Shown: positions 733 through 62,864 of the stretch, piece by piece
Position numbering within the stretch: the stretch's first letter is position 1
How the letters are laid out: each line of letters starts with the position of its first letter
Assembly (NCBI GenBank): GCA_004335835.1
Contig: RWJK01001686.1
Location: forward strand, 1-64,000
Reading direction: 5' to 3'
DNA from: Scenedesmus sp. ARA3
Lineage: Eukaryota > Chlorophyta > Chlorophyceae > Sphaeropleales > Scenedesmaceae
DNA: 64,000 nt
Program-made: the position numbers and the translations under genes
Notes under the pieces: model-generated
Told to the model about the DNA's origin: nothing
Database searches by the model: none
Seen by the model: only the letters and a program-made list of their open reading frames with translations

Positions 733-2518
733 CTACACCGCGCCGTTGCTTGCAGTATCCTTGCTCTGCTGCACTGCCACAGCAGCTCCACCGCTGCCCT
801 TGTCTGCTGCGCCGCACGCATCTGATGATGAGTCATCATCACCCTGACGCCCAACTGCAACAGCAGAGCTGCTGCTTCCGGCAGCAGCAGCAGCAGCAGC
901 AGCAGCATCGCTGCCGTTCGCATCTTGCTGGCAGGCTGGCAGCGTGCCTTCGCCTCCCAGCAGCTCATCGCGTCTGTTTCTGTACATGAGGTGCACGGCT
1001 GGGGCTGTGATGCAGGTTGTGGCGATGGCCATGATGATCATCATCGTGAACATGCGAGGACTCAGGATGCCCTGCAGCAAAGCACATATCGCAGAAACAT
1101 TGGAAAGCAATGTCATTGAAAGCAGGCAGGTGATGCATGTTTGAAGCGCAGCAGCGGTCTCAAGCACTGGTTGCATAACAAGAGACCAGGACCTGACCGT
1201 TCCAGGAGAGCCCAATGTTGGCCGTGATCACCTCCACAGCAAACACACACAGCATGAACACACAGTGCATGGGACCCCGCATGGGACCCCGCATCACAAC
1301 ACCTCAGATCACTTCCAGATCACACAGCACGCTCACCATGGATAGTCCGATGTTCAGCGCGATCACCTCCACCAGCCCCCGCGTGTTCATCAGCAGACCC
1401 ATCGCAACACAGAAGCGCCAGTCACGCTTTGTAACAAGCTTGCTGACAAGGCAGGTCGGCGTGAACTTGGCGAAGCAGGCGATGCAGATGATGGCCAGGG
1501 TGATGCCCCAGTGGCGGGCTGAGGAGAGGGAGCCCAGGTCGGTGCGGATGCCGCTGTTGGCGAAAAAGAGGGGCAGGAACACCTCGGCTGCAGGCAGGGC
1601 AAGCAGGGCAGGGACGCAAGCATACGCAGTCAGACACTGACAGTTGCAGAGAAGCTGCCGAAGAAGAAGTGACTATCAAGGCCCGCTGCACCATAGACGC
1701 CGGGTTGGGACGGAGTCTAAGCGCATGCAGCTGCAGGCAGTGCAGTATAAGCGCATGCAGCTGCAGGCAGTGCAATATAAAGCTTCACCATCACACACAA
1801 AACCACCCCCAACTGGGCCGCATTAGCTCATCCTCCACCGTGTCACTCACTCACGACCAGCTCCATGCGCACTGCCAGCTCCTCCGCAAAGTTGCCCTCA
1901 GTGGGCATCACCAGGCCAGCCACAAAGCCCCCAAAGAAGCAATGAATACCCAGGCCCTCCGTTGTAAACGCCGACGCCAGCATCAGCAGAAACAAGCATG
2001 ACAGGTAGTAGCGGTTCTGCGCGAGTCCTTTTGTAGCCAGCCAGCGATGTGTTAATGCCAGGAGTGGCTTCACAAGGACCATCATGAAGGCCACGTATGC
2101 TGCTGCCAGGAGGGTGGTGTACAGGCCCAGCAGGGCACTGCCAGACTTGGCAAAGGAGGAGGCCAGGGCCAGCACGCACCACGCAAGCACATCATCGATG
2201 GCTGCGCATGACAGCGCCTGCAGCGGAGGCACCATGTACAGAGCAGGCAGGTTGTCGGAAGAGCCAGAAGCGAGGAGCAATCAGGCCTGGCTCGCAGAGA
2301 CCTTGAGTGCTGCTGCTGCTGCCGGTACAGCCCAATCATGCCATAAGCCTGTGGTGCAGCCCACCCAGTGGCCGCCAGCAGCAACAGCAGCAATAAAAGC
2401 CAGCTGCCCGTGAAGGGCATGACCGCTGCTGCTGCTGCTGCAGCCCGGACCCACCTGAATGCCAATCGGCGCTGCTAGCAGCCCCACGCTGCTCAGCACG
2501 CTAGCCAGCACAGAAAAG

Positions 2519-2550
<32 letters not shown>

Positions 2551-2973: not shown

Positions 2974-3011
<38 letters not shown>

Positions 3012-14807: not shown

Positions 14808-14990
14808 GATGCGCTGGCGCTGAGTGCGCTGACTGGCCTCACGCGCCTGGTGCTGGCAGGTTTAGGCGGTGGCGTGGGCGATGAGGCAGCAGCAGCATGA
14901 GCAGCACTTGCGCGCAACTGCCGGCAGCTGCGGCACCTGGACTTGAGCTGGTGCAGCCTGCGAAGCGGGGCATGCCTGCCTGAAATACCC
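14808..14990 (+). pseudogene. LRR gene fragment with in-frame stop codons
   Basis: Read on the plus strand, this stretch gives DALALSALTGLTRLVLAG, then GVGDEAAAA, a TGA stop, and then RQLRHLDLSWCSL. It is colinear with the C-terminal repeats of the other LRR copies, but both ends break off abruptly and a second stop follows. It is a relic about 180 nt long in the orientation opposite to copies 1 and 2. Confidence 0.85.
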
Positions 14991-15761: not shown

Positions 15762-15798
15762 AATTTGTTTGGTGACACAGTGTGTCACCAAACAAATT
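15762..15798. repeat. Perfect inverted repeat, 18-nt arms, 1-nt centre
   Basis: The arm AATTTGTTTGGTGACACA is followed by a single G at 15780 and then its exact reverse complement. It could extrude as a cruciform or fold as a hairpin, or mark a foldback element end. Confidence 0.95.
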
Positions 15799-16055: not shown

Positions 16056-16121
16056 GATGGCAAAGCCACTGTGGCAGCTGGCAGCACAGCACTGACATGT
16101 TGCCTCTGACAACTACCTTGC

Positions 16122-19490: not shown

Positions 19491-19534
<44 letters not shown>

Positions 19535-21350: not shown

Positions 21351-22496
21351 ACTGACTTTGAAGTCGGCTGCTAACACTGGCAGTGTTACATGCAACAACC
21401 ACCATTCAGCATCGACAGTTATGGCACACGAATCTGCAGCCAACTTTGGCTGTTAACAGCGCCGGCAGTACCCCACGTGTTACACACTATGGAGTCCAGC
21501 ATGTCAAGCCAGCACAACCGAAGACACCACCACTTGCATCAGTATCTGTAGGCAGTATGTGTGGCTGAGCTCGAGAACATTGGAAGTGTGGTGAGTTGCA
21601 ACCTTGGGCACAACGTCTAGCTTGGTTAGCTATCCAACAAGCCCATCTGGTGCAGGAATTTGCACGAATGATGGTGCCACTACAACGCTGTAGTGGCTTG
21701 CCATGGCAACGCAGGACCAGGCTGAGCTGTTATAATGATACAACTGGTACAAGCTGATATGCCTAGAAACATCCGAACACACACTTGTTCAGGGTCCACA
21801 AATCCACAGTCATGCATTGGCAGCATACATGTAGGGCAAAACTGTTCCACAAGCAACCAAAACGCCGCACACACAACCCAGGTACAAGAGGCCACTGACA
21901 GCACAAATGACGCCCCAATGGTATAACATGTTGCTTGACATTGCTGTCAGCTAGCCGCCCACACGATTGGCTGACAACCCTACTCGCAAGCACACAACTG
22001 TACAACCACCGCCCTGCTTCTCTCTGCAATGGCAGTTCGCAACATCAAGAGCATCTTGTGCAAGCCTCAAGGGTGGCAATGCACCAGCTCCTTCACTCAA
22101 TCGTGTCCATTGTCTCAACTATTTGAGACTTTGCTGACAATGTGCATGCACACTGCGGCAGCTGTGTAATGGAACGGCAATCCCTCCTTCACCACAGAAG
22201 GCGCCACGCTTCAAGCATACGTCCACACATAAGGCATGCACACTGCTGGGCGACATGCGCCACCTTGACATGCTGTCCAACACGCTGCTGCTTCAGGAAA
22301 ATCCAGCAACTGCAGCCTCATAGCAACCAGCAGGACTGGCAACACCCTTCTTCAGCACCAGCAGCTCACACAACATAGAGCACAATGACCACATCGGCAC
22401 GCAGCATAGCCAAGGTGAGCTGCTGCCTGCCAGCTCACAAATTACTTACTATCTCTGTTTCACCTCAAATGGCACCAAATCACACCACTAATTGTG

Positions 22497-22640
22497 CATC
22501 ATGAAGACAGCACCGGAAGGCCCCGGGCTGTTGCTCATCATGCCGGGGCTGCCCATCATGCCCATCTGCCTATGCCGCTTGGCAGTGGCACAGCCCAACC
22601 CAATCTTCCATCATGAAGACGGCGCTTGAGGGTCCAGTGC
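22497..22640 (-). repeat. Echo copies of the terminal FBPase exon, beyond its stop codon
   Basis: Two imperfect copies of the last coding segment of the bisphosphatase lie downstream of its stop at 22736. The one at about 22497-22572 includes the [15 protein letters not shown] stretch, and the one at about 22608-22640 includes the [12 protein letters not shown] end. They are in the same orientation as the gene. Confidence 0.8.
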
Positions 22641-22735: not shown

Positions 22736-23326
22736 TCAGTCGTCCATCATGAACACGGCGCTTGAGGGTCCCGGGCTGTTGCTCATCATGCCTGGGCTGC
22801 CCATCATGCCCATCTGCTGGTTGTGCCAGGGCGAGGAGGGGTTGGCGGCGGTGCCGGCCCACTTGTGGAACGTCTCGATGTAGCGCACTGCAGGGAAAGG
22901 ACAACCCACAGGAGAAGCACAGCCAAGGAGTGAGTAGAGGACGGCATACAAGCTGTCATGCGTGCGGCTGCTGTGCCGGTGTTTGCTGTAGCGCACTGCA
23001 GGCAACATGTGTGGCACAATGTCAAAGCACAGCAATGGGTTCAGCAAATGTGGTGGCAGACGCAATGTCAGTCGCTTGAAAGCAGCAAGCGGTTTGAATG
23101 CTGCTAGTCGTCTTGCTGCGCCTCAAATGTGTTCAGTTGCTCAACCGCTAGTCGTCTGCGCCATCCGCCATCAAAACAACACAGCCCTGCCAGCCTGGCC
23201 CGCGCACCTGTCTGCGACTTGCCGCGCATGACCACGCTGTTGGTTGAGGCGCCGCCGCTGTAGAAGCGCACCCCGCGCACTAGGTCGCCGTCAGACACAC
23301 CCGTGGCAGCAAAGAAGCACTGCAGA

Positions 23327-23367
<41 letters not shown>

Positions 23368-25137
23368 GCAGGTGTCAGCTGTAGAAGCAAGTACACATCA
23401 ATGAGCGGAGTTCACAGTTTACTTGGGCAAGCATGGACAGCAGCAGGGGTTATGTGCAATGCAAAAGTGCCTATGGAAACATTACCTACAATCAACGCAG
23501 CCCCACGGCCCAACAACACCTCAACTCACGTCGTTGCCTTTCACCAGATCGTCTGTGTACAGGATCTTTGTCAGGTCCCGCCCGCTGGCGCGGATGGCCT
23601 CTGCCTCCTGCTCATTCTTGGCCCACAGCCGGCCCTGGATGGAGCCGCCCATGCACTTGAGCGCGGCGGCAGCAATCACACCCTGCAGGGGCAGCATTAC
23701 AAGCAAGCAGGTCGTATGTGAGGTTACAGGGGCTTGACGTGCACTCGAGCGCTGCAGCAGCAATCACGCCCTGCCAGGTGCAGCAGCAGCAGCAACAGCA
23801 GTCGTGTGGTGCAGACAGATGGTCAGGCCGTGTTGCATTGGGCTGATTTGCCCATGCACTCTAGCGCGGCAGCAGCTATCACGCCCTGCAGTGACGGCAG
23901 TTGGCGCAGTGCAACAAGCAAGCAAGCAACTTGTCCAGACTTCGGACCATGCTGAACAGGGCCAAACAACTGACGTGTTTCAGAGTTCATGCGTGCACAC
24001 AAGAGTGAATCAACAACACTTTGAACCACAACATGCTGCCAGCCTGTGACCAAGTGTGTTGACATCATGTGACTCGGACACACCACACCTCTGGAGTGCC
24101 TCCAATGCCCATCATAACATCCACTGGGGCCTCAGGCTTTGCTGTTTCAATGGCGCCCCCAACATCGCCGTCGCTGATCATGCGGATGCGTGCGCCTGCT
24201 GCGCGGATGTCTGCGATGAGCTTTGCGTGCCGCGGCCGGTCCAGCACCAGCACGGTGACGTCACTGCATTGCACAACAGAGCAATATGCCAGCACAAATC
24301 ACAAAGGGTGTTTGAGGTGAGCTCTGCATGGCGTGGCCAATCCAGCACCAACACGGTGACGTCACTGCAAAGGGTGACAACGCAAGCGACACAGACGCCG
24401 CGGCCATTGAAATAGGTTGAGCAAGAAGGCATCACTGAGCATGGACGCGCCGCTGCAGCTGTGTGGCAACACAAGCAGGCAGCATCTCAGCAGCACTACC
24501 GTGGCAACCACACATGAAGCACATTGGATGACATATCCTGAATCTCACCTGACTGGCTTCCCGAGGCAGCTGGCCACCGCCTCCAGGTTGTGTGCTACGC
24601 TGTAATCCAGGCTGACACGCCGCGGGTCCACGCCCGGGCCCACTGCCAGCTTCTCCATGTAGAAGCAGGGCCCAAACAGCAATCCAAAACCTCAGCCCGC
24701 CTCACCTGACTGGCTTGCCCAGGCAGTTGGCCACTGCCTCCAGATTGTGCGCTACGCTGTAATCAAGGCTCACACGCCGTGGGTCCACGCCAGGTCCCAC
24801 TGCCAGCTTCTCCATATAGAAGCAGGGCCCGGGGTCGTACATGCAGCCGCGCTCAGCCAAAGCAATGACCTGGCAGCGGCGGCAGCAGCAGGGGCAGCAG
24901 CAGCAGGCGGGGTGATGAAAGCAGGGGCAAGTTGCCAGCTTCTCCATGTAGAAGCAAGGCCCGGGGTCGTACATGCAGCCGCGCTCAGCCAGAGCAATGA
25001 CCTGGCAGCAGCGCAGCAGCAGCAGCAGCAGCACGGGTCGGTGTCGGGTGATGCCAGCTTCTCCATGTAGAAGCAGGGCCCGGGGTCGTTCATGCAGCCA
25101 CGCTCAGCGAGAGCAATGACCTGGCAGCAGTGGCGGC

Positions 25138-25178
<41 letters not shown>

Positions 25179-25287
25179 GGGTTCAGAGAGCAGGGGCAAG
25201 GTGCCAGCTTCTCCATGTAGAAGCAGGGCCCGGGGTCGTACATGCAGCCACACTCAGCCAGGGCAATGACCTGGCAGGAGTGGCGGC

Positions 25288-25321
<34 letters not shown>

Positions 25322-25541
25322 CGGGTTAGTGTTAGGTGATGCCAGCTTCTCCATGTAGAAGCAGGGCCCCCGGTCGTACATGCAGCCGCGCTCAGCCAGG
25401 GCAATGACCTGGCAGCAGCAACAGCAGCAGCAGCAGCAACATCAGCAGGAGGTTTGGCGACAGCAGCAACAGGCAACAGCTTGACCATGTAAAACCAGGG
25501 CCCAGCGTCATAAGTGCAGCCACGCTCAGCCAGGGCGATGA

Positions 25542-25578
<37 letters not shown>

Positions 25579-25954
25579 CAGCAGCAGCAGGGTTTGGCGA
25601 TAGTAACAAGGTATACTCAGCCGGTTCGCATGCTGCTGCGCAGTGCTTCAGCTGCCCTGCTTTGTATGCACGTAGTATTCATGAAAAGCCAGTGTGCTGT
25701 ATGTTTGCAGCACTCACTGCGATGGCGCCGCTGTGGCTCTGTGCTGCAAGTGTGATGCCATCCAAGGGGCCGACACCAATGCAAGACCAGCGAACCAGCT
25801 GTAAACAATCCATCAGACAGAAATAACCAAATATGCGGAGTACTCACTGCGATGGCGCCGCTGCGGCCCTGTGCTGTGAGCGTGGTGCCATCCAGGGGGT
25901 CCACTGCAATGTCCACCATGGGGGGCGTGCCGTCACCAATGTGCTCGCCTGCAG

Positions 25955-25989
<35 letters not shown>

Positions 25990-38699: not shown

Positions 38700-38754
<55 letters not shown>

Positions 38755-38926
38755 TGTGTGCGATGCGCATGCCTGTGGACATGCTGATGATCTGGCTGCC
38801 TCAAATTGACGTGCACACTTGGCTGCTGCTGCTGCTGCTGCTGCTGCCAGGTGTGTGCGATGCGCATGCCTGTGGACCTGCTGATGATCTGGCTGCCTCA
38901 CATTGACGTGCACACTTGGCTGCCGC

Positions 38927-38971
<45 letters not shown>

Positions 38972-41243
38972 AAGGTGTGTGCGATGCGCATGCCTGTGAA
39001 CCTGCTGATGATCTTGCTGCCTCGAATATAAGTGCTTACAATGCCGCCGCCGCTGCTGCTGCGTTTGTCTTCTTTCAGGTTTGCGCGACGCGGATGCCTG
39101 TGGACCTGCTGATGATTTGGCTGCCTCAGATCCTGGAGGGCATGCTGCTGTGGGCGGACGACTCCAAGAACAAGTTCAGACTCAAGGTGCGAGGCAGTTG
39201 TGATGAATCACATGTTGCGTGTTATATCATTGTTATGTTTGTTCTGGTTGCAGTGACGGAGCAGCCGCGGCATGGGCCTGTTCCTGTTGCTGCTACCTTT
39301 CTTGCGTGGTCTTCTTCTCACTGAACTATCTCTACTGCGTTGACTGTCACTGGCACTTACATGATCAACTGATTGAAGCTCACACGTATTGATGCAGACC
39401 CACAGATCCACGTGAGTGTCTGGTGCGGCGCTGCGGCTGCGAGGCAGTGGCTCTCACTGCTTCCCCTCATCAAATCCAACAAAACACCATGCCACACTTG
39501 TAACACTCGCAGATCCGCGTGATTGTGGAGCGGCTGGTGCGGCGCTGCGGCTACGAGGCGGTGGCGTCCGCCTGCCCCCCTGGTGACGCCAAGCTGCTGA
39601 GCCACATCCGCAAGCAGGCCAGCCGCAAGGAGCGGCGCAAGGCGCAGGGCAGCGAGGGAGGAAGCCAGGTGCGGCTTTAAAAGCGGAATATTGAATTATT
39701 AGAGTTGTATTTTGTGCAAGTAAAGCAGCATAGAGCAAGATGCCTGCCAGGGTGGCAGCCAGGTGCGGCTTCAAGATGAATATTCTGCAGAGTCATAGTA
39801 GATATAGCAATATAGAACACTCGACCTGTCATGCTGGCAGTCAGGTGGGGCGCAGGGCAGCGAGGGAGGCAGCCAGGTGCGGCTCCAACATGACGAGTTA
39901 GAAATGCAAATATAACATATAGAAGTCAGATTGATATTGCAGCATAGCGACATAGAACAAACGGCAGGGTGGCAGCCAGGTGAGCCGCAGGGCACCGAGG
40001 GTGGCAGCCAGGTGCGTGGATGAGGAGGCAGATGTGCCGTGGACTGTCTGTGCACGGCCACGTTCTGCAGCAACCCTCTTATGAGACCTTCCATGCTTTG
40101 ACCAGACATGTCCCTTGCTAGCACCACAATTCCTGGTGTACTGCATCTGCTGCCCCCTGCAGGCCGACGCAGCCAAGATTTACTGACGCAGCCAGCGCAA
40201 CCAACAGACAAGACATGTTTGCTTCTCTCTCTGTTGTGTTGCTGGCTGACACTGCACTCTGCATTTGGCACATCTTCTGTTTATCCTTGCAGGCCGACGC
40301 AGCCGAGTTTGACCGCCGCAGCCAGCGCAGCGCCGGCAGCGCCGCACGCAGCGTCGCAGGCCGCACCGCGCGCGCCAGCGAGTGGGGCCACACCGCCATC
40401 TTCAGCGAAGATGGTGATGCAGCCACACAAGCAGCAGGACATGCGGCTGGATATGCGGCTCGCGGCGGGCCTGCAGGCTCTGCTGCTGCTCGCAGCCGCT
40501 TTGGAGATAGGCCAGACGGCCGCAGGGGGGGCAGCGGGGTGCGGCTGGCAGGTGATGGCGCAGCAGATGATCCGCTGGATCTGTTAGAAGCTGCCACAGC
40601 ACGGCAGCTGGTGCGCAGCGCGGCTGGGAATGCGGCTGGCGGGCGCGGCGCTGGTGGAGCAGCAGCAGCAGCCGCAGCGGAGTTTCCGCGCGGGGATGAC
40701 GGGCGCATGCTGATTAAAGAAGAGAAGGATGAGTTTGGGCACATCAGCGCGAGGCGGGCCGGCAAGCGCAAGCGCGGCAATGCAGAAGAGCAGTTTGGCG
40801 GCTTTGGTGACGAGGACGATTCAGATATGGAAGATATGAAGGGCTTTGCGGGGCTCGCTGCTGCTGTGAAGAGCGTGGCGAATGCCAAGAGCGTGAAATT
40901 TGCGCCGAGCATTGCAGCAAGCCTCGGCAACCGCAGCACGGCAAGTAAGAAGAGTGCCGGCGGCCGCAGCGAAGGTGGCAGGTCCAGCGGAGGCAAGGGC
41001 AGCCAGCACAGCGGGGAGCGGTTTAGGGCCAAGGGTTCAGCTTCAGGAGATGTTAAGGGTAAGGGCGGGGGCATTGACCCGTATGCGTACTGGCAGTTTG
41101 ACAGGAAGATGCTCAACCGGCGGCGCGGCAAGCAGGCGGAGGCGTCGAAGGGGTTGGGTGGGGTGGTGGCGGGCGCGCAGGCGGGCGCGCTGAAGGGAGC
41201 TAAGGCGAAGCGGGCAGCAAATGCGAAGCGCGCACGGCGCTGA
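27861..41243 (+). CDS. RRP12: RRP12-like ribosome biogenesis protein (NUC173/HEAT-repeat)
   Basis: Nucleolar HEAT-repeat protein for maturation and export of pre-ribosomal subunits. Eighteen exons: 27861-28343, 28665-28793, 29155-29251, 29604-29762, 30650-30838, 30983-31143, 31490-31706, 32067-32277, 32898-33202, 34089-34603, 34979-35092, 35560-35709, 36711-36889, 37225-37444, 37973-38398, 39079-39186, 39513-39668, 40293-41243. They join in frame to 1589 residues, longer than the roughly 1200-1300 usual, because of Gln/Glu/Asp-rich inserts. RRP12-like blocks are LTDARPKVRKRAQSSV, WLLPALRKHVRGSQLGFW, KTRTAAYQLIVDIAHEL, SREVIKAVLGFIKVC, LPQILEGMLLWADDSKNKF and VIVERLVRRCGYEAV. They are followed by a charged tail ending AKAKRAANAKRARR-like, which fits nucleolar targeting. 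Almost every intron carries echoes of adjoining exons. Confidence 0.88.
30091..30649 (+). repeat. Array of four exon echoes before RRP12 exon 5
   Basis: The acceptor plus about 75 nt of exon 5 (ASLPSLSEQLVKLYGLRQPL) occurs four times before the real exon, at about 30091, 30228, 30355 and 30510. Each copy runs into a shared CTTTTGCCCTGCAAGTAACC-like tail and a CTG-rich tract. In each of the copies the reading frame after the acceptor is largely open. Confidence 0.92.
32592..32790 (+). repeat. Two exon echoes before RRP12 exon 9
   Basis: TTGCAG followed by codons for RSLGPQVVLEVLPLQIHEGL appears at about 32592 and 32720, before the authentic exon start at 32898. The three copies are separated by (CTG)n tracts. 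Confidence 0.9.
33380..33472 (+). repeat. Exon echo of the 3' end of RRP12 exon 9
   Basis: About 90 nt from the 3' end of exon 9 (CHALELQLWGCLQAFAAW region, up to AYEG) are repeated in the next intron. The donor GGGTGAGC has become GGGTGCGC. Confidence 0.9.
33752..34060 (+). repeat. Three exon echoes before RRP12 exon 10
   Basis: The acceptor and the first 35-70 nt of exon 10 (GMAPDLAAVFHTREDLRGNV) recur at about 33752, 33838 and 33960 before the real exon at 34089. The two nearer copies retain the sequence as far as GNVA. Confidence 0.9.
34697..34748 (+). repeat. Exon echo of the 3' end of RRP12 exon 10
   Basis: The codons for SSLKWLRLMCKVF are repeated after the exon donor with an altered end (ATGAGGTAGG). 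Confidence 0.85.
35128..35352 (+). repeat. Two exon echoes after RRP12 exon 11
   Basis: The last two thirds of exon 11 (ALAATASVADPQELAGLFRL through QKYGK and the donor) are repeated at about 35130-35222 and 35264-35352. Donors read GTAAGTA and GTGGGTG, so both remain credible 5' splice sites. Confidence 0.92.
35808..36150 (+). repeat. Two exon echoes after RRP12 exon 12
   Basis: The 3' two thirds of exon 12 (SPEERQASFLELALCLAGGL, then PDAALDPLFA) is repeated at about 35808-35900 and 36048-36141. The first copy ends in a GTGAGTA donor. Confidence 0.9.
36455..36650 (+). repeat. Two exon echoes before RRP12 exon 13
   Basis: The acceptor and first 60 nt (ACRQHVLGGSSLLQKRC) recur at about 36459 and 36588 before the authentic exon at 36711. 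Confidence 0.9.
36930..37010 (+). repeat. Exon echo of the 3' end of RRP12 exon 13
   Basis: The codons for GQLLELLLLGSAAALSRAKR are repeated with several changes after the exon donor. The copied donor region reads CAGACGGG. Confidence 0.85.
37486..37550 (+). repeat. Exon echo of the 3' end of RRP12 exon 14
   Basis: The codons for VALAQLLVGELVLATKE and a GTGCGTT donor are repeated about 100 nt into the intron. A shorter third trace lies near 37663-37700. Confidence 0.88.
38478..38530 (+). repeat. Exon echo of the 3' end of RRP12 exon 15
   Basis: The last 40 nt of the exon (SREVIKAVLGFIK) and the following GTAGGGGCAGAGCAC are repeated almost exactly, so the duplicated unit spans both sides of the splice junction. 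Confidence 0.92.
38625..39035 (+). repeat. Array of four exon echoes before RRP12 exon 16
   Basis: The acceptor CCAG/CAAG and the next 55-60 nt (VCAMRMPVDLLMIWLPQ) occur four times at about 38628, 38755, 38852 and 38974, before the real exon at 39079. Units are joined by runs of up to 17 CTG triplets that end in the acceptor CAG. After LPQI the copies diverge from the exon into a shared GACGTGCACACTTGGCTG sequence, showing that the array expanded as units after the first copy formed. Confidence 0.95.
39405..39455 (+). repeat. Exon echo before RRP12 exon 17
   Basis: CAGATCCACGTGAGTGTCTG followed by GTGCGGCGCTGCGGCT imperfectly duplicates the start of exon 17 (IRVIVERLVRRCGYEAV). Confidence 0.8.
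40160..40200 (+). repeat. Exon echo before RRP12 exon 18
   Basis: TGCAGGCCGACGCAGCCAAG and the next 20 nt copy the acceptor and start of exon 18, but with a premature stop. Confidence 0.8.
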
Positions 41244-42223
41244 AGGGGTGGCTTGGCGTGTGTAGGATGGGTTGCAGCAGCAGCAGCAGCAGCAGCAGCA
41301 GCGGCAGAATTGAGAAGTTCACGTGCGCAGAGCAGGGGCAGCGCTGCAGGTGGACAGAGTCGTGCGGTACAGCAGCTGGCTGTTGCAATGCAGCCCAGGC
41401 TGGTTGCCTGGCTGGCATCTCGCTGCACGGCAGGTTGTGGGGGTGATGTGGATTCTGTTGTGCCATATGCACAGCCTCTTACTGTGGCATGCTCACCTGC
41501 GGCAGTGTCATGTGCAGCTGATGTGGCGCAGGCACTGCATGTGGGACATGCCCGCTGGGCATGCGGCGGCTGCAGATCGTCCAAACCAGGATGGACAGAC
41601 ACAACTGCACTTTGGGCTGAGGTGATACATACATGGTTAGTTGGCAGCCCTGGTGGTGATACTGGGTTCGCTGGCCATGGTGTGCTTGCTGCCCATGGCC
41701 TGGCAGCAGCCACATGGCCTGCATTTGTGCAGCACTTCGAGCAGAACTTCACTGACACCCCACTTGCAGCTGGTTAAGTGCATTCCCATACAATCGTCGT
41801 TTGTTGTTGGTTTCACCCTGTTTTGGCATGCCGTCAAAGCCGGCAGGTCGAGAAGCTGAGCATCTGAGCAGAAGCGAGAAGCTCATGCCAAGGTTAGGAG
41901 TCAAAGCAACATGTCACTCTTGCTGTTTGTGGTCTCGGTAGCTATGTATGTATCAAAGTACCTGTGTTGAGCGGAATATTGTGAAAGAATGCTTACAACA
42001 CGCGGCCTTTTGTGCGCCCGCCACTTCAAGTGACTATAATAGCTGTCGTTGCTTCTGCTGTACTACAAATCTCTTACCTTTGCTTTTTCAGAATACAACT
42101 TGCAGCAGGGGATTGCTGGCTTGCGGAAATAGACACATCAGAAAGAAGCAATGCAGCACCTGCAGCTTCGCAGCGCAGCTGCGCATGTGCAGGTGTGCAA
42201 CACGCTGTACAATATATCAGCAA
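41244..42223. other. 3' flank of RRP12 and 5' flank of the antiporter
   Basis: No convincing gene. An open frame of 174 codons at 41253-41777 has no recognisable family feature, begins in a CAG run and overlaps two other open frames. It is probably non-coding or untranslated sequence. Confidence 0.5.
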
Positions 42224-45011
42224 ATGTTTTACAGAGCAAACGTGGGGTCTGTGGCGCTGACGGTCAACTTGGGTCCATTTCAGGCAACTCGGACTGGCCT
42301 TGCTGCGAAGGCAGTGATCAGGCCACTTGGGCTGCACAGGTAAGCCTGCTTAATTGAGCTTATATTGTTGGCATTGCGATCGATGGCAACAGCACGTTAA
42401 ACTGCGTGTGCCACTTCAGCAGGCCACCAATCTTCTCGACACAGCTCAGGAGGCGCGGAGATGCCCTGGTATCTCGTTTCCTACCAAAAGATGGAGACAA
42501 GGATAATGCGGCAGCAGAGCTTGAGCAGCAGGTGGGTGTCGTGACGGTCCTACTGCTTGGAGTGGGAATAACCCTTGCAGGCGTCTGCACAGCTCTGCAT
42601 GCATGCAAGATCACAACATATTGTTTGTGAGGTCGCTAAGCACGTGACAGAGCTGTGCATGCGCACCAGACAGCTCTAATGCATGCTGCTGTTTTGCATG
42701 TGCAGCTGCACATGCCTGATCCAGCAGAGGGTGTCAGCATTAGCGCCCCGTCCATGGTCTGCTGCAATGCAGACAAATTTTGTCCGTATTTATTCAATTT
42801 CTTCAGCTTCCACCTCGTAGCATGTCTGACATGCTTGCTGCATGTCCTCATCTCTTTGCGTCTCGCTGCACTGCTGTGCTGCGCCTATTGCAGGGCAAGG
42901 CAGCAGACGTGCCTGCAGCCCCGCAGGAGCCGGATGCAGCAGCAGCAGCAGCAGCGCCCTACTCAGCGGACTTTGTCAGGCGGCGGCTGCTGGTGTTTGC
43001 AGGCATCGTGATTGGGTGAGCAGCCAGCTGCAGGGTCAGTGCAGCTAGGCCAAGGATGACGCAGCATGAGTCATGCTGCAGCAGCTGCATGCTTGCAGGA
43101 ACATTGTGTACAGCGCTTGAGCAGCAGCAGCAGCAGCAGCAGCAGCCCAGGCGGCTCTGCCGCACGAAGAGCTTGCGCATTGGCAGCGTTCTTGGCTAAC
43201 AGCAATAGGCGAGACTGTTGATTGGTTGTGCTGCAGCTCCTGCACTCCTGCTCTCTGCTGGCATGTGGTAGCATCTGCTGTCTCTTCCCCGCAGCTACAC
43301 CACCTTCTACCTCACGTGTGGCAGCCTTTAACAAACACATTCAGGTTTTGCTCATCACTCACATGTTGGCAAACTGCTTTGATGCATTTGTGCCCCCTGC
43401 AGCTGCACCACCTTTTACCTCACACGTGGCAGCCTCACCTACAGCGCCCAGCCTCAACACATGCCAATACACACACATGCAGCTGCTGCGTTCTGCCGAG
43501 TTGCTGTAGCATTTGCCGTTTCTGCGCTGCAGCTGCACCACCTGCTACCTTGCGCGCGGCAGACACAACACAAAGCCTCTGGATTAGATCTAGCTTCTGA
43601 CATGCGGTAGCATTGCTGTTTTTGCAATGCAGCTACACCACCTTCTACCTCACCCGTGGCAGCCTCACCTACAGTGCTCCGGCCATGGTGGCAGACCCGG
43701 CCCTGGGCTTCAACCTGACACACATCGGCACCATGACCAGCATCTTCCCCATGGCTTACGGTGTCAGCAAGTTTGCAGCAGGTGCGGCTGCGCAGTGTTT
43801 GTGTCTGTTTCAGCAGCAGCCATTCTCAGTGGCAGCTGCGCAAGGTTGAAGTAAGTGCAGCGGTGGCGGCACACCCAGTGAGCGCTGCCGCTTACGGCAT
43901 GCGGATAGCGTTGCTGTGCAGTGTTGTTTGTCTCTAGTACGACCAATGGCTGGCGGAGTGTTGTCGCTTGTCAGCAGCTTCCTCTTGTATTGTTCATTCA
44001 TCAGCCCTTGCTGCCCCTGCACCACCACCCACCTTCAGGCGTGCTGAGCACCGCCGTATTGCGCGCCTGCTGTGCTGCATAAAACTTGAGTGTAACCGCG
44101 CGCTGGTGTTATGTCTGTGCCTGCAGGCGTGCTGAGCACTGGCGTGTCAGCGCGGCTGCTGCATTGCACGGTAATCTTCAATAGTAACTACCTGCTGCTG
44201 CTGTGTTTGTGCATGCAGGCGTGCTGAGCACTGGCGTGTCAGCGCGGCTGCTGCTGGGGCTGGGGCTCATGGCCACAGCAGCCGTCAACATTGGCTTTGG
44301 CGCCAGCAGCAGCATGATGCTCTTCTGCACGCTGTGGGGACTCAACGGCATGCTGCAGGGCGTTGGAGCGCCAGCCTGCGCCACAATTCTGACAAGGTAC
44401 GTCCGGTGGCTATGCGTAGGGGTGATGCTTGGGTTGCGGCTTGTCCTGGTGGGTACTGGTGGTCTGCATGCACGCTGCGGGGCGTGAACGGCATGCTGCA
44501 GGGCGTGGGGGCACCGGCCTGCGCGACGATTCTGACTAGGTACGTTGGCTATGGTTTGTGTTGCTTGCTGTTGTGTGCTGTGGGGCTTGAACGGCATGCT
44601 GCAGGGAATTGGAGCGCCAGCTTGCGCCACGATTTACGACGCGGTGTGTTGGTGGTTGTGATTCAAGTTGTTAGTGTTGGGTGCTGGTGGTGTGCATGCG
44701 CTCCGTGGGGGTTCGGCCGCGTGCTGCTTGGCATGGCTTTGTGCTTTGTTTTCTGGGCTGCATTTGATAGCGTCATGTGCTGGCAACGGCTGCAGCTTTC
44801 AGGGTACAAAGTCGCCAGCTTGCCTCACTGGCTTCCACTGCAACTGCATCGAATTGTAAAAGCAAGTCGCGGTGAGACTGGTACCTGTAGCCAGTTGCAA
44901 AACCACTTGCTCTTACAATTCGAGCTATGTTGAAGTAGCCGTAATCAAGCGAAAAAACAATGGCTTTTACCATAGGCGCTCATCACTGGTGCTGTTTCTC
45001 ACGGCACTCTG

Positions 45012-45060
<49 letters not shown>

Positions 45061-45308
45061 AGGTGGTTTGCTGCCAAGGAGCGTGGCACCTACTGGGGCA
45101 TGTGGAACATCGCACACAACCTGGGCGGCTTCCTGGCACCCGTCATCGTGGGTGAGTCACAACATTTAGTCAAGCAGCGGCAGCAGTAGCAGCAGCAGCA
45201 GCAGCAGTACTGCACATGTTATCGCCTAGCACGTCAAGCAACTGGAGCCTGCAACGGCCTGTTGCGCGGCTTTCCAGGGCACGTTGCTGCAACTTGCGTA
45301 AACCTGAG

Positions 45309-45346
<38 letters not shown>

Positions 45347-48152
45347 GAACTTACCCGGGCAGGTGGCTGTGCCAAGGCCTTTGGCTGGCGCTGGGGCATG
45401 TTCACTCCTGGCCTCATCGGCCTGTCTGTTGGGCTGCTGGTGCTGGCAGCAGTGCGTGACAAGCCAGCTGACCTAGGCTTCCCTCCTGTGGACGCCCCAG
45501 CAGCAGCAGCAGTGAAGCAGGATACAAAGCAGGATGTAGCCAAGCCCCAGCAGCAGCAGGATACAAAGCAGGATGTAGCCAAGCCCCAGCAGCAGCAGGA
45601 AGACAAGCAGAAGCAGCAGCAATCCGGCGGCATGCTTGCAGCCCTCAAAAGTGTTGCCAAGCTGCCCTCAATTTGGGCGCTGGCTTTCACCTACTTCTTC
45701 ATCTATGTGGTCCGCGCCGGCGTGACAAACTGGATGGTGTTTTACCTCATGGCTGAAAAGGGCGCTGCAGATGCCGGCACTGCTGCGCTGACCGTGTCTG
45801 GGCTGGAGCTTGGGGGCCTGGCTGGCAGCACTGTTGCTGGGCTGCTGAGTGACAGGGCGATCCGGGGAGCAAAGGATGGCAGTGGGCTGGTCGGCAAGCG
45901 CATTCAGGTGGGGTGAACACAACATTGTTCAAAAAAAGGCGACACAAGTTGTGTTGAAGATTGGTGCTGGCATGTATATGTGTGGTGGCGTGGGTGACTG
46001 ACGTGTTTGCTTAGGCCTTGGGCCTTGTGCTGACTGTGTCTGTGCTGGAGCTTGGCGGCCTGGCTGGTAGTACGGTGGCTGGGCTGCTGAGCGACAGGGC
46101 AATCCGGAGTGCCAAGGACGGCAGTGGGCTTGTGGGCAAGCGCATCCAGGTGGGTTGAATACAACATTCTTCAAGGGAAAGGCAACACGACTTGTGTTGA
46201 AGACTGGTGCTGGCATACTCATGTGTGGTGGCGTGGGTAGTAGCTGTGATTTTGTTGGCTGTGGGGCGGGTGCTGTGTGTCTGGGCTGGAGCTTGGGGGC
46301 CTGGCTGGCAGCACAGTGGCTGGCTTGCTGAGTGACAGGGCGATCCGGAGTGCCAAGGATGGCAGTGGGCTGGTCGGCAAGCGCATCCAGGTGGGTGGGC
46401 ATGGCAGTACTCGCTTATTGCTGGTGTTTGCACAGCTGTGAGGGCGATGGCTGTGTTTGTGTGGGCTTTGGGGCGTATGATGTGTGTTCTGTTGGAGCTT
46501 GGCGGCCTGGCTGGCAGCACGGTTGCGGGTCTGCTGAGTGACAGGGCCCCAGTGGGCATAAGGAGGGCAGCGGCTTGGCCGGCAAGCGCATCCGGGTGGA
46601 TGATGTTGAAGTGTCTGAAACCGGCGAATGCTGCATTGTGCTGATGGGTTTTTTGGTGTCCTGGTGTTTCAGCTGCGTGGTGGTGTGAGCGGGCATGCCC
46701 AAGTTGGTGGCAAAGACAGCTAAAGGCTGATTTGTGCTGATTGATCTGGTGGTCGGCTCTTGATATACTTGTGGTGGTGTGCGCAATTGTGTTGAGTAAT
46801 AGGCGCGGCAAGTAGTAGTGCTGATGAGTAGGATGAGTGGTGCATGGAGTGGTCTTGTTGTTGGCCTGTTTGGTGACCACCTTGGCTTGCAACAAGCTGT
46901 GGTGCATATGACGTGCGTTGGAATTGGCACGGTGTGCGGCAGATGCTTGCTGCAGAGTTTGTTGGCAGAGGTGGTGACAATCACATGCCGTCGCATCTGC
47001 CACCAGACGCTGCAGCAAGCACAGTGGCCAGTGTTGAGGGTTTGTATGTGGTGCGCACATCCTGCCTTTTTCGTGCCGCTTTTTTTTGCCCCAATGCTCA
47101 GTGGTGTCTTGCCAGTTGTTGCCGTGCATTCAAGAGGATGGGCAAGGCAGTTACTTGAGCTGGTGAGTGGTGCATGAAACGCTGGTGTATGTAGTGCTTT
47201 GTTTTTGGTGCCTTAGTTAGAAGCCATGGTGCTGTGGCATTGCGTAGCAACCGGCACAGGCGTTTGGCAATGCTTGCTGCAGAGTGTGTTGGCAAGAAGA
47301 GGCAAAGCAATCTGCCGTCGCACCTGCCACCACACGCTGCAGCAAGTGCATCGCCTTTGTTTTGGGTTTTCATCTAGGATGTGTGTACCAATATCATAGC
47401 TGTACATGCTCACGATCATTCCGCCCTTAGCGCCTGCCTGTGCCCTTGGTGTCTCCGAGCAAATAGCCGTGGGCTCTGCTGTAGCCACAGCCGGTGGTGC
47501 CCTGCTCAGCCTACCAGCAGCACTGTGGCGCACATTCTCTCCGAACGTTGACATTGTCACTGCTGTGGCCATGGCATTGCTGTATCCTTGCAGGTGGTCA
47601 TGGGCTACACTGTGGCCATGGCAGGCGCACTGCTGGCCCTTCAGGCAGTGCCAGCCGAAGCCAAGGTACTGCAGTGGCTGGCCATCGCAGCACTATCAAT
47701 GAAAAAGCCTCGTCAAGACCTTGCTGACAATGCTGTCCTGCTGTTTTCTGTGTGTTGCCTGCCTGCTGCAGGTGGTCATGGGCTACACTGTGGCCATGGC
47801 AGGTGCGCTGCTGGCGCTGCAGGCAGTCCCCGCAGAGGCCAAAGTGCTGCAGTGGCTGGCCATCGCAGCCCTCGGCTTCTCCATTTACGGACCACAGATG
47901 CTCATCGGCCTGTCTGGCGCAGAGCTGGTCTCCCCTACTGCAGTGGGGGCAAGCCAGGGTATCCTGGGCTGGATTGCATACCTGGGAGCAGCGAATGCAG
48001 GCATCCCGATTGCGCACGTGGTGCAGAGTCATGGCTGGGCCGGGTTCTTCACTGCGATGCTGGGGGCGTGCGGCGTGGCGCTGCTGCTGCTGGCGACGGT
48101 GGCGAATGCGCAGAGCTACGGGCAGCGGCAAGCAAAGGTGGCGGCCGCCTAA
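42224..48152 (+). CDS. Organophosphate:phosphate antiporter (MFS, GlpT/UhpC-like), plastid-targeted
   Basis: Major facilitator protein of the OPA family, which exchanges sugar phosphates or glycerol-3-phosphate for inorganic phosphate across a membrane. Exons: 42224-42339, 42420-42531, 42894-43015, 43633-43781, 44219-44396, 45063-45151, 45363-45907, 47772-48152, in frame, 563 residues. Exons 1-2 give an Arg/Ser/Thr-rich presequence (MFYRANVGSVALTV start) consistent with plastid import. The OPA/MFS core includes YTTFYLTRGSLTYSAP, IGTMTSIFPMAYGVSKF, GLNGMLQGVGAPACATILTR, WFAAKERGTYWGMWNIAHNL, WRWGMFTPGLIGL, YFFIYVVRAGVTNWMVFY and GFSIYGPQMLIGLSGAELV. A hydrophilic Gln/Lys loop with a duplicated QDTKQDVAKPQQQ unit separates the two halves. 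The exact substrate cannot be told. The sister genes in bacteria are UhpC, UhpT and GlpT. Confidence 0.9.
43290..43575 (+). repeat. Three exon echoes before antiporter exon 4
   Basis: The acceptor GCAG followed by CTACACCACCTTCTACCTCA-type sequence (YTTFYLTRGS) occurs at about 43293, 43400 and 43531 before the authentic exon at 43633. Confidence 0.92.
44033..44165 (+). repeat. Two exon echoes before antiporter exon 5
   Basis: CAGGCGTGCTGAGCACYGSC and following bases (GVLSTGVSARLL) recur at about 44036 and 44126 before the true exon at 44219. Confidence 0.88.
44475..44645 (+). repeat. Two exon echoes after antiporter exon 5
   Basis: The last 60 nt of exon 5 (GLNGMLQGVGAPACATILTR) are repeated at about 44478-44545, retaining a GGTACG donor, and at about 44580-44640 with the donor lost. 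Confidence 0.9.
44850..44922. repeat. Imperfect inverted repeat, 18-nt arms
   Basis: The arms CGAATTGTAAAAGCAAGT (44850-44867) and ACTTGCTCTTACAATTCG (44905-44922) pair with one mismatch. The 37-nt loop holds a smaller ACTGG/CCAGT stem. It lies in the intron between exons 5 and 6 of the organophosphate antiporter. Confidence 0.85.
46010..46605 (+). repeat. Three exon echoes after antiporter exon 7
   Basis: The last 110-130 nt of exon 7 (VSGLELGGLAGSTVAGLLSD through VGKRIQ) are repeated at about 46027-46150, 46270-46392 and 46490-46600. Each except the last is followed by a GTGGGT donor. The farthest copy is the most diverged. Confidence 0.92.
47590..47700 (+). repeat. Exon echo before antiporter exon 8
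   Basis: About 105 nt from the acceptor CAG through VVMGYTVAMAGALLALQAVP to WLAIAAL are repeated upstream of the real exon (47772) with few changes. This is one of the longest and best preserved echoes and keeps an open frame. Confidence 0.93.
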
Positions 48153-61200: not shown

Positions 61201-62864
61201 TGGGTGTGAGGGCGTGTGCTGTTGTGTACACTGTTATGTGCAGTACAGTAGGTTGGTGGCTTCACGCTACAGGGTGTAATGGTGCGAAGCAGGTTTTTGA
61301 TTGGCCCTGCCGTGTAATGCTGTGCACACTGTTAGTGGGTGTGCTGCTTTGCGTGTCGTGAGTGAGTCTGGGTTTAGATGGTGGCGGTTGTACTGGCAGC
61401 AGGCTGCCTAGTGTTAGACCCTCAGATTGCTGCAGCCCTGGCAGCCTGGCTGCCGTGCTTGCTGGTAAGGAAACAGGCGCCGTTACAAATATGTATCAGG
61501 ATGCTGTGACGTTGGCCCGCATGTTGTTTACAACCTGCCCTGGCTGGGGTTTGCAGGAGCGCTGCCGGCGGTTAAAGCAGTCACTGCAAGCAGCAAAAGC
61601 AGATGCAGCAGCAGCCACCGACGCCGCATCTGCTGCGCAGGAGCAGAGCCAGCAGCTGCAGCAGCAGCTGCAGCAGTCGCAGCAGCTGGTGCGGCAGCTG
61701 GAAGCAGACCTGCTAGCTATGAGCTGCGCCGGCAGCAGCAATGGGATAGCAGCAGGCAAGCAGCAGCCAGCTGCTGCTGCTGCTGCTGCTGCTGCAGGCA
61801 GTGCCGGTGGTACGGGGGAGCAGCTGGGGTCCTCTGCATTGCTAGTTGATGCTGAGCTACTGCGGCTCGTCTCCAGCAGTGGAGCTGCTGACGGCAGCAG
61901 CGACACGCCAACAGCAGCAGCAGCAGCAGCAGCAGTGGATGAGGCAGGGGCAGGGGCGCTGCTGGCAGCAGTTGCGGGTCAGCGTGATAGGTTCAGGGTG
62001 CGGTTACAGCAGCTGGAAAGCGAACAAGAGGGTTCAAAAGAGCAGCTGCAGCAGGCGCAGGCGCAGATTGAGACGCTGAAGCAGGACAATGTAGCGCTGA
62101 TTGAGAAGATCAGGTTTCTGGAGCGATACAAGCAGCAGCAGAGCGCGGCGGCGGCAGCAGCAGCTGCAGGCGGCGGCAGCGGGGCATCACAAAGTGTCAC
62201 TGTTATTCGAGTTGATGGTGCAGGATGTGTGGTCCAAGGCCCAGAGGGGTATGGCTATGGCGATGCTGCTGCAAGCAGCAAAGGCAGCAGGAGTGGCAAG
62301 CAGAAACGGCGGCAGGCTGGTTGCTTTGGCATGATGGGAGCTGCTGGTGCTGCAGTTGCAGCAGAGGATTGCAGCAGCAGCAGCAGTGTGCTAGGCGCTC
62401 CGGAGGCTCGATACCTGAAGGAGTATGAAGCCAAACTCAACCCGTTTGCTGAATTTCAAGCAAGCGAGAGCGAAGCTGCGCGGCGGGGGATGCGGCTGCA
62501 TGATAAGGCCATGCTGGCTGCAGGAAAGCTGATTGCAGGCAGCCGGCTTGCGCGTGCAGGGCTTGCACTGTACTTCTTTTTGGTGCATGTGTTCCTCATG
62601 GTGCTGATGTATCACGGCGCGAGCCCACACATGACGCTGCAGCAGGCAGCAGTAGGTGCAGTCGGTACAGGTGCTGGTGCAGCTGCAGGTGGTGGGGTTG
62701 CTGTTGATGGGCTAGCAGCAGTGCGGCGAGCTGCAGCAGGTGCTGGTGTGGGTGCTGTAGGGGGCTCTGGGCCAGCGGCTGCAGGAGCAGCAGCAGCAGC
62801 GGGGGCTGCTGACGGAGGTGGTGGGGCATCTGGGCTGCGGCTGTTGCTGTGGGGCTTGGGTTGA
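58204..62864 (+). CDS. CASP-type Golgi coiled-coil membrane protein
   Basis: Tail-anchored golgin of the CASP family, a cytoplasmic coiled coil tethering vesicles at the Golgi. Exons: 58204-58369, 58569-58624, 58824-58995, 59259-59401, 59590-59682, 59945-60064, 60343-60600, 60969-61199, 61557-62864, in frame, 848 residues. From about residue 80 to 690 the sequence is a long heptad-like coiled coil (LQQQLEQLLEQLLSL, LQASLTSLRAEHEASQ, LLTTKLAAAESRLERL) with Gln and Ala inserts. The diagnostic C-terminus has ALIEKIRFLERY, then YEAKLNPFAEF (about residues 702-713), a basic linker and one membrane span (ALYFFLVHVFLMVLMYH, about 747-766). A Gly/Ala-rich luminal tail of about 80 residues after the span is unusual. 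The intron after 60600 appears to start with GC (GCGAGT) rather than GT. The start is the ATG at 58204. Confidence 0.87.
60805..60860 (+). repeat. Exon echo before CASP exon 8
   Basis: ACAGGTGGGGCTGCTGGCAA and following bases copy the acceptor and start of exon 8 (VALLTTKLAAAES) at about 160 nt upstream of the real one, with several substitutions. Confidence 0.8.

What the first reader, a model, noticed from the sequence alone, without database searches (positions are those of the whole stretch)
733..62864. Pervasive 'exon echoes': introns filled with direct copies of neighbouring exon edges
Seen directly: all eight intron-containing genes that I reconstructed carry imperfect direct copies of their own exon edges in the adjacent introns. 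I count roughly 60. Copies before an exon carry the 3' splice site plus 30-105 nt of exon start. Copies after an exon carry its last 30-130 nt plus, usually, the 5' splice site. Orientation is always the same as the parent. Divergence ranges from about 4% to over 20%, which argues against simple assembly error. The genes are unrelated, so this is a property of the genome and not of one gene. Inference: recurrent tandem duplication of short segments, perhaps driven by slippage or break repair at CTG/CAG runs, lengthens introns and creates spare splice sites. It may feed alternative splicing or be a by-product.
Basis: partly seen in the sequence, partly recalled or inferred. Interest (0 to 1): 0.92.

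Follow-up and report, generated by a model that had tools for sequence, protein, structure and literature searches.

The report
Exon-edge copies sitting inside introns
In this green alga many introns carry imperfect copies of the adjoining exon's edge with its splice site, and in the genes checked the copies differ from each other the way working genes do, which ordinary repeat formation does not explain.

Summary
In 260 kb of this Tetradesmus obliquus genome, local repeats are direct, not inverted (444 vs 9 hits). In three genes with homology-supported exons (GlpX, RRP12, hexose-phosphate transporter) I counted 42 exon-edge copies; 40 lie in introns (15 of 33 introns, 16% of intron sequence). 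Order is invariant (39 of 39).

Junction-spanning alone is what random short tandem duplication predicts. Two further features are not. (1) Similarity often stops within 12 nt past the exon edge (22 of 41 pairs; 2.5 expected by shift, 5-8% by simulation). (2) Differences are codon-structured: positions 1/2/3 differ 6.6/3.6/22.3%, dN/dS about 0.10; copy-versus-copy comparisons agree. A copy decaying neutrally since birth predicts 238 nonsynonymous codons; 69 are seen, and these look random. Ab initio exons elsewhere repeat the trend more weakly.

CAG/CTG runs are not enriched at copy ends. Best reading: recurrent local duplication whose copies spent most of their divergence as working exon edges on other haplotypes, before decaying in introns. 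In-situ selection is the bold alternative. Phased genomes and long-read RNA would decide.

The parts
22739..26915 (-). GlpX-type fructose-1,6-bisphosphatase gene, 9 exons found (5' end incomplete): 26860-26915, 26482-26560, 26220-26277, 25848-25948, 24706-24869, 24089-24263, 23530-23682, 23208-23319, 22739-22887
   Evidence: spliced alignment to P0121 (348/349 identical); PF03320 E 2.7e-79
24933..25542 (-). five tandem copies of acceptor plus first 66-69 nt of exon 24706-24869 (24933-25001, 25052-25120, 25202-25270, 25340-25408, 25477-25542), separated by CTG runs
24549..24673 (-). copy of last 125 nt of exon 24706-24869 plus donor; 11 synonymous and 1 nonsynonymous codon differences
25718..25781 (-). 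copy of end of exon 25848-25948 plus donor (decayed: 4 synonymous, 6 nonsynonymous)
24306..24364 (-). copy of acceptor plus start of exon 24089-24263 (decayed: 5 synonymous, 6 nonsynonymous)
23740..23885 (-). two copies of acceptor plus start of exon 23530-23682 (23740-23770, 23850-23885)
22494..22640 (-). two copies of the end of the last coding exon, beyond its stop, so not in an intron (22494-22569, 22603-22640)
28023..41240 (+). RRP12-like gene, 18 exons by spliced alignment; an array at about 29997-30726 probably belongs to a further exon near 30515-30838 (gene finder) missing from the reference protein
   Evidence: 1470/1474 identical to P0241
32594..32793 (+). two start copies of exon 32898-33202 (32594-32663, 32726-32793)
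33375..33462 (+). end copy of exon 32898-33202 plus donor
33752..34037 (+). three start copies of exon 34089-34603 (33752-33790, 33840-33910, 33964-34037)
34701..34745 (+). end copy of exon 34089-34603
35138..35350 (+). two end copies of exon 34979-35092 (35138-35218, 35270-35350)
35809..36140 (+). two end copies of exon 35560-35709 (35809-35900, 36048-36140)
36461..36511 (+). start copy of exon 36711-36889; a second near 36591 was merged into a longer match and not counted
37489..37539 (+). end copy of exon 37225-37444, 1 difference in 51 nt, flanks not similar
38627..38903 (+). three start copies of exon 39079-39186, nearly identical to each other (38627-38679, 38754-38806, 38851-38903)
39849..40199 (+). 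end copies of exon 39513-39668 (39849-39876, 39983-40011) and a decayed start copy of exon 40293-41240 (40163-40199)
42151..48149 (+). hexose-phosphate transporter (MFS) gene, 9 exons
   Evidence: spliced alignment to P0001 and P0002
43295..43567 (+). three start copies of exon 43633-43781 (43295-43327, 43403-43447, 43533-43567)
44039..44162 (+). two start copies of exon 44219-44396 (44039-44072, 44127-44162)
44469..44634 (+). two end copies of exon 44219-44396 (44469-44539, 44577-44634)
46026..46595 (+). three end copies of exon 45363-45907 (46026-46149, 46277-46390, 46493-46595), differing from each other mainly at third positions
47594..47694 (+). start copy of exon 47772-48149: 11 synonymous, 0 nonsynonymous codon differences

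Best explanation
Short stretches at exon edges are repeatedly duplicated beside themselves in this alga. A stretch runs from the middle of an exon to just past its splice site. Shown: a copy sits on the intron side of its parent, start copies upstream and end copies downstream, and its match covers only one of the two splice sites of an exon. Inferred: it is tolerated because exon definition pairs the nearest acceptor and donor, so the mRNA keeps the parent. Shown in three genes: the copies differ from their parents and from each other mainly at synonymous sites, at about the intron rate, with indels confined to intron where both were aligned, yet the nonsynonymous changes are random in kind and some hit invariant residues. 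Inferred: a gene has one working slot per exon edge, so copies that diverged like this must have been working exon edges on other chromosomes for most of the time. They were brought into cis recently by unequal exchange between diverged haplotypes of a diploid, possibly hybrid, alga, where exons plus the splice consensus were the only alignable sequence, and have been decaying since (roughly 10-20% of the divergence time).
For: Order rule 39 of 39. Edge: 22 of 41 pairs end 2-12 nt past the exon edge against 2.5 +- 1.7 (21 of 40 without the GlpX stop-end pair). End copies (15): identity at donor +1..+5 is 0.87-1.0 (+4 0.87 against 0.26 for mismatched introns), then 0.27 at +6, the control level. 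Codon positions 59/892, 32/893, 200/896; dN/dS 0.10. Where at least 80 nt of intron align too: intron 17.3%, third positions 18.7%, positions 1+2 3.5%, indels 0 per 689 exonic vs 51 per 2664 intronic nt. Copy-copy 37/646, 36/648, 145/650 over 34 overlapping pairs; 16:11:60 over 13 disjoint pairs, p = 1e-11. Simulation of a copy neutral from birth expects 238 +- 11.5 nonsynonymous codons; 69 seen, bracketed by the grid values 10% (55) and 20% (82) of unconstrained time. Nonsynonymous changes random in kind: mean BLOSUM -0.71 vs -0.85; 17 of 69 seen in homologues vs 23.6%. Transcript-like proteins carry the parent version where the two differ. Literature: PMC12636532 (passages seen) describes a diploid, extensively heterozygous T. 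obliquus, 'potentially consistent with hybridization', citing a UTEX 3031 paper whose title, read in its reference list, reports 'genetic divergence of the haplotypes'.
Against: Present-day relatives differ too little: window versus OEZ86 4 of 1474 and 4 of 552 residues, versus OEZ85 0 of 367 aligned; I infer a synonymous divergence of a few percent, not 29%. In the relative NREL 46B-D3, alternate-haplotype scaffolds were recognised at 95% identity (PMC7955037, passage). The transporter array holds four mutually diverged versions, so a simple two-parent hybrid is not enough. Flanking introns of many copies show no homology where allelic introns should align (24 of 39 below z 1.5). Start copies lack the sharp edge: they keep 0.39-0.44 identity against 0.26-0.33 out to about -40. 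No close second copy of the two loci searched in this assembly. Outside the three genes the codon signal is weaker (144/1156, 128/1154, 285/1147), the annotation-free phase test gives only 34 of 225 at p < 0.05, and the splice-motif test is below expectation in the rest of C1287 (8 against 12.0).
Confidence: 0.4

Rival explanations
1. Plain neutral short tandem duplication. Random segments of about 60-500 nt duplicate in tandem; those spanning one junction survive because the mRNA is unchanged; copies then drift.
For: Simulation gives a junction share of 0.45-0.81 among tolerated events, so 41 of 70 is unremarkable. Clear tandem arrays with co-duplicated intron exist (GlpX 24801-25609, MFS 45784-46602, RRP12 38355-39131). 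Some copies look neutral, e.g. 24306 (5 synonymous, 6 nonsynonymous) and 40163 (0, 4). The ab initio set is nearer to it: its ratio of about 0.48 lies between the simulated 0.51 (copy free for 70% of the time) and 0.42 (50%), with 0.65 for a copy free throughout.
Against: In the three genes it predicts 238 nonsynonymous codons against 69, equal codon positions between two copies against 16:11:60, and an intron overhang of 12 nt or less in 5-8% against 22 of 41. Indels 0 per 689 exonic against 51 per 2664 intronic nt.
Confidence: 0.2
2. The copies are under selection where they sit: they act as working alternative exon edges, or as spare sequence that is exchanged into the exon, so nonsynonymous changes and lost splice sites are removed.
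For: Copies compared with each other are codon-structured when pooled (37/646, 36/648, 145/650 over 34 pairs); splice dinucleotides intact in 24 of 24 start and 14 of 15 end copies (matching by similarity may favour intact ones); no exonic indels where intron is co-aligned.
Against: Offsets are mostly out of frame (7 of 39 multiples of three); transcript-like proteins use the parent; the remaining nonsynonymous changes are random in kind and some hit residues invariant in the aligned homologues, such as Trp to Arg at codon index 198 of the transporter and Asp to Tyr at index 487 of RRP12 (counted from zero). By my own estimate, not a tool result, exchange rare enough to leave 29% synonymous divergence is too weak to select unless diversity is extreme.
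Confidence: 0.2
3. Assembly artefact: a heterozygous diploid was assembled so that fragments of the second haplotype were laid in tandem inside introns of the first.
For: Codon-structured divergence is what two working haplotypes show; draft assembly of 1567 contigs; diploid strains of this species and a relative reported (PMC12636532 and PMC7955037, passages seen).
Against: In the six introns with both kinds, end copies precede start copies (coordinates), the reverse of a linearised bubble. Copies carry changes at invariant residues. One array holds four mutually diverged versions. An annotated T. obliquus protein on an 8.1-Mb contig contains the RRP12 copy near 38.4 kb letter for letter, though that copy is of the near-identical, flank-included type.
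Confidence: 0.12

Closest known systems
Intron gain by tandem genomic duplication / internal gene duplication (Hellsten 2011, Gao and Lynch 2009; known here through passages and the reference list of the review PMC3443670)
   Same: Short direct duplication inside genes that duplicates splice signals and can leave the mRNA unchanged
   Different: There an exonic segment holding AGGT becomes a new intron. Here existing introns grow, copies match one exon edge each, many end at the splice site and they are codon-structured
Introners (PMC9860276, search listing with start of abstract seen)
   Same: Large-scale remodelling of introns across many genes
   Different: Introners are copies of one element in many genes; here each copy derives from its own neighbouring exon, and three searched stretches found no dispersed relatives beyond CAG-run matches and one 71% transporter paralogue
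Tandem or mutually exclusive exons (recalled)
   Same: Adjacent similar coding segments separated by unlike intron, divergence mainly synonymous
   Different: Copies match half an exon with one splice site, offsets are mostly out of frame, and no use was seen in the transcript-like proteins examined
Minisatellite or VNTR arrays (recalled)
   Same: Tandem units of about 100-250 nt, apparent unequal expansion
   Different: Unit edge often coincides with a splice site; exon part and spacer evolve at different rates
False duplications from heterozygous assembly (recalled)
   Same: Tandem near-copies with haplotype-like divergence
   Different: See the artefact rival: order, invariant-site decay, more than two versions, and one copy found in an independent assembly

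Membership tests
Intron gain by tandem genomic duplication | New intron bounded by the two copies of a duplicated exonic AGGT segment | tested here: not met
   Copies lie inside introns and repeat their own exon's edge with its splice site; order 39 of 39. Whether the introns themselves are old was not tested
Intron gain by tandem genomic duplication | Direct, local duplication | tested here: met
   444 direct vs 9 inverted hits
Plain neutral tandem duplication | Whole unit including intron flank duplicated | tested here: inconclusive
   Met in arrays; not seen for many single copies
Plain neutral tandem duplication | Copies diverge with the codon structure of a neutral copy against a constrained parent | tested here: not met
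   Three genes; the ab initio set comes closer
Introners | Sequence-similar elements in many genes | tested here: inconclusive
   Three copy-bearing stretches from two genes searched in the genome: no dispersed family apart from matches on CAG runs; the tool skips common words
Tandem or mutually exclusive exons | Both splice sites present and in-frame use | tested here: not met
   Matches cover one splice site; inner ends inspected by eye in about eight cases; 7 of 39 offsets in frame
CAG/CTG-driven duplication | Repeat runs at breakpoints | tested here: not met
   18 of 80 ends vs 19% background
Assembly false duplication | Absent from independent assemblies and reads | tested here: inconclusive
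   One copy found in an annotated T. obliquus protein; reads not available
Minisatellite or VNTR | Length variation between individuals | not testable with these tools
   No second strain's DNA held

The most novel reading that the evidence does not exclude
Exon-edge copies in T. obliquus introns are a maintained reservoir: each copy keeps reading sense and its splice site because selection acts on it in place, either through low-level use in splicing or through exchange back into the exon. The genome would carry spare exon edges as a working part of gene maintenance.
Probability: 0.17. Interest if true: 0.93.

Novelty: new variant of a known kind. Interest (0 to 1): 0.74.

Why it matters
How introns grow and how spare splice sites arise is often reconstructed from scattered cases. 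Here one genome offers many copies with both an exonic and an intronic clock in the same unit. The codon-structured divergence of sequence that does not appear to be translated forces a choice: either this alga's history includes very deeply diverged haplotypes that exchange exon edges, or intronic copies are under selection. Both can be tested with phased genomes, reported for the species, and with long-read RNA. A practical point follows too: such copies can mislead gene prediction, as in the RRP12 annotation.

Tried and rejected
CAG/CTG slippage as driver: no enrichment at copy ends. CpG or GC-direction bias as the cause of third-position excess: third-position differences are symmetric (parent GC/copy AT 72, parent AT/copy GC 78). 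A paralogous or second copy of the gene as source: 47580-48150 finds itself, a 71% match at C845 and one short self match at 48178-48220; 45700-46600 only itself; the GlpX stretch 96 matches, those elsewhere lying on its CAG-run parts by coordinates; RRP12 was not searched. Use of copies with internal cryptic splice sites to make the same protein: looked for by eye in about eight cases, nothing consistent. Intrachromosomal gene conversion or deletion load: rejected by argument, not by a tool. Tandem gene duplicates as a yardstick for intron decay: the LRR family was searched, but its loci could not be cut out and the matches were too diverged (78% or less among the longer ones). Ab initio models retrained with masking drifted to tiny exons.

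Rows dropped. One search gave 48 exon/non-exon pairs with counts 87/994, 58/996, 225/999. Six judged chance or misaligned (starting at 37367, 29607, 39735, 39843, 39414 and 48109) were removed before the 42-copy count. (indels, order) used 41 pairs, one GlpX copy (22601) fewer; 39 of these include the aligned junction. The 15-of-33 intron count and the CAG test used 40 copies. One search was given 37 copies and found a parent for 34. Pairs classed exon-exon (6 of 87) were not counted, which omits copies near 36591 and 36931-37012; the array at 29997-30726 was not counted either, so some introns listed as without a copy do hold one. Exonic gaps do occur outside the co-aligned pairs: 7 deleted columns over the 48 rows. 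The 13 disjoint copy-copy pairs were picked by hand.
Full report
WHAT WAS TESTED. The window is contig C1287:1-64000 of an 87.3-Mb, 1567-contig genome. Its proteins are near-identical to Tetradesmus obliquus: RRP12 1470/1474 to an OEZ86 protein, the transporter 0 differences in 367 aligned residues, one gap apart, to an OEZ85 protein. I held 260 kb in all: the window plus 196 kb, from ten contigs, some of it masked with N.

THE REPEATS ARE REAL AND DIRECT. With simple repeats masked, local direct repeat hits outnumber inverted ones 444 to 9 (overlapping hits not merged), so low complexity and chance do not explain them. Density is uneven between contigs.

GENE MODELS. I wrote a gene finder and a spliced protein aligner. 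Three genes have firm exons: GlpX-type FBPase (9 exons, 5' end incomplete, P0121, 348/349), a hexose-phosphate transporter (9 exons, P0001 and P0002) and an RRP12-like gene (18 exons, P0241). P0121 and P0001 come from short contigs (up to 2.9 and 3.2 kb) whose uninterrupted reading frames match joined exons, so I take them as transcript-derived (inference). Where a copy differs in a residue they carry the parent version: GlpX Asn not Ser at codon index 145, transporter Gly not Ser at index 416, counted from zero.

COPIES IN THE THREE GENES. Of 70 pairs with score >= 25, 44 are exon versus non-exon and 41 include an exon edge (circular-shift null 25.3 and 15.1). One of the 41 is at the stop end of the last GlpX exon. 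A simulation of random short duplications that leave the mRNA intact gives a junction share of 0.45-0.81 depending on ancestral intron length. So junction-spanning itself is not special. What is special is where the similarity stops: 22 of 41 pairs stop 2-12 nt past the edge (null 2.5 +- 1.7, none of 1000 shifts; simulation 5-8%); 21 of 40 without the GlpX stop-end pair. Position by position, end copies match their parent at donor +1 to +5 (0.87-1.0; +4 0.87 against 0.26 in mismatched introns) and drop to 0.27, the control level, at +6 (15 copies). Start copies (24) match at -1 to -5 (0.79-1.0), then fall, but less sharply: 0.44, 0.40 and 0.39 at 9-15, 16-25 and 26-40 against 0.33, 0.28 and 0.26 in the control; the arrays may account for this, which I did not separate. 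Flank homology was scored twice: z above 2 in 22 of 34 against shuffles, with splice consensus included, but above 3 in only 2 of 39, and below 1.5 in 24 of 39, against mismatched introns beyond position 8. Arrays such as MFS 45784-46602 and GlpX 24801-25609 do have co-duplicated intron.

CODON STRUCTURE. Over 42 non-overlapping copies the differences from the parent exon fall 59/892, 32/893 and 200/896 on codon positions 1, 2 and 3. With six doubtful pairs kept (48 in all) they are 87/994, 58/996, 225/999. 194 codons differ synonymously, 69 nonsynonymously; pN 0.036, pS 0.29, dN/dS 0.10 (41 pairs). In pairs where at least 80 nt of intron align too, intron differs at 17.3%, third positions at 18.7%, first plus second at 3.5%, with 0 indels per 689 exonic and 51 per 2664 intronic nt. 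Two copies compared with each other, neither being the exon in use, show the same when pooled: 37/646, 36/648, 145/650 over 34 overlapping pairs and 16:11:60 over 13 disjoint pairs; single pairs vary and some show no structure. A simulation in which the copy is free from birth expects 238 +- 11.5 nonsynonymous codons; the observed 69 lies between the values for a copy free for 10% (55) and 20% (82) of the divergence time. Yet the nonsynonymous changes that exist are no more conservative than random ones (BLOSUM -0.71 vs -0.85), are seen in homologues no more often than random (17 of 69 vs 23.6%), and some hit residues invariant in the aligned homologues. I conclude that copies are decaying now but were constrained before.

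REPLICATION ELSEWHERE. With ab initio exons outside the three genes, 72 exon/non-exon pairs were found, 64 with a junction; 18 of 64 have an overhang of 12 nt or less; an older model gave 78, 65 and 16 of 65. In the 64 pairs with well-scored exons, a different subset of the 72, codon positions differ 144/1156, 128/1154, 285/1147. That is the same direction but weaker: the ratio of about 0.48 lies between the simulated 0.51 (70% free) and 0.42 (50% free), with 0.65 for wholly neutral copies; wrong exons and frames would dilute it, but this was not shown. Annotation-free tests are positive overall but modest and uneven. Repeat ends fall on a splice-like motif in both copies in 75 of 432 against 54.6 +- 6.4 outside the three genes, driven by C600 (15 against 4.1), C1000 and C1288; the rest of C1287 (8 against 12.0), C400 and C1500 lie below expectation. 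Mismatches are 3-periodic in 34 of 225 pairs at p < 0.05 and 14 of 225 at p < 0.01; in the three genes 9 and 5 of 36, in the rest of C1287 4 and 1 of 32.

CONSEQUENCES. Introns with a counted copy have median length 617 nt (15 introns) against 320 (18 introns, a few of which hold uncounted copies), p = 7e-6; copied exon sequence is 2,568 of 16,257 intron nt. PMC5966456 (passages seen) gives a mean intron of 462 bp in T. obliquus UTEX393 against 230-302 in four other green algae, which such growth could help explain (inference). Splice dinucleotides in copies are nearly all intact (24 of 24 and 14 of 15), yet the parent is used where this could be told. Each copy matches only one exon edge, so pairing of the nearest acceptor and donor (exon definition, established knowledge) would pick the parent (inference).

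WHAT IT MEANS. One chromosome has one working slot per exon edge, so a history within one lineage should leave nonsynonymous divergence near the neutral-copy level (argument). The three genes are far below that. Either the copies diverged as working exon edges on other chromosomes and were joined in cis recently, or they are selected in place. The first fits random late decay and the reports of diploid, heterozygous T. obliquus and a diploid relative (PMC12636532 and PMC7955037, passages seen; the UTEX 3031 paper itself was not found in the library, its title was read in a reference list). It is strained by the small divergence between present strains, by four mutually diverged versions in one array, and by flanks that share no homology. 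The second fits the array data but not the random decay, the frames or the transcripts. I lean to the first without certainty.

ARTEFACT. The RRP12 protein of another T. obliquus assembly (8.1-Mb contig) contains the copy near 38.4 kb, read through as coding sequence, letter for letter. This shows that at least one junction copy exists independently and that annotation can take a copy for exon. It does not test the codon-structured class.

PRINT. Ten searches of the held open-licence library, some only partly on this question, were made. Their listings, several of them capped, show no description of exon-edge copies in introns of Tetradesmus or other algae; most subscription journals are not held. 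The nearest ideas are tandem genomic duplication and internal gene duplication as routes to new introns (PMC3443670, passages).

Noticed in passing
window 38355-38521: A near-exact 123-nt tandem duplication across the end of an RRP12 exon is annotated as coding in the T. obliquus protein P0241, where the peptide SREVIKAVLGFIKV appears twice.
   Followed up: partly
window about 29997-30838: A multi-copy array lies before a further likely RRP12 exon (gene finder) that the reference protein P0241 leaves out; possibly misled by the copies.
   Followed up: partly
genome-wide: Very many CAG/CTG runs: 83,153 and 85,430 overlapping exact matches to seven CAG units on the two strands.
   Followed up: no
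window 22494-22640: Copies of the last coding exon of GlpX lie beyond its stop codon, so exon-edge copies are not confined to introns.
   Followed up: no
window 12868-20961 and contigs C219, C1531, C998, C1231: Family of diverged leucine-rich-repeat genes, partly clustered.
   Followed up: no
L011-L028: Repeat density differs strongly between contigs: C1000 and C1288 very high; C800, C1200, C1300 and C200 low.
   Followed up: no
window 38627-38903: Three start copies of one exon are nearly identical to each other but differ from the exon at five third positions and share Met where the exon has Thr; homologues mostly have Met.
   Followed up: partly
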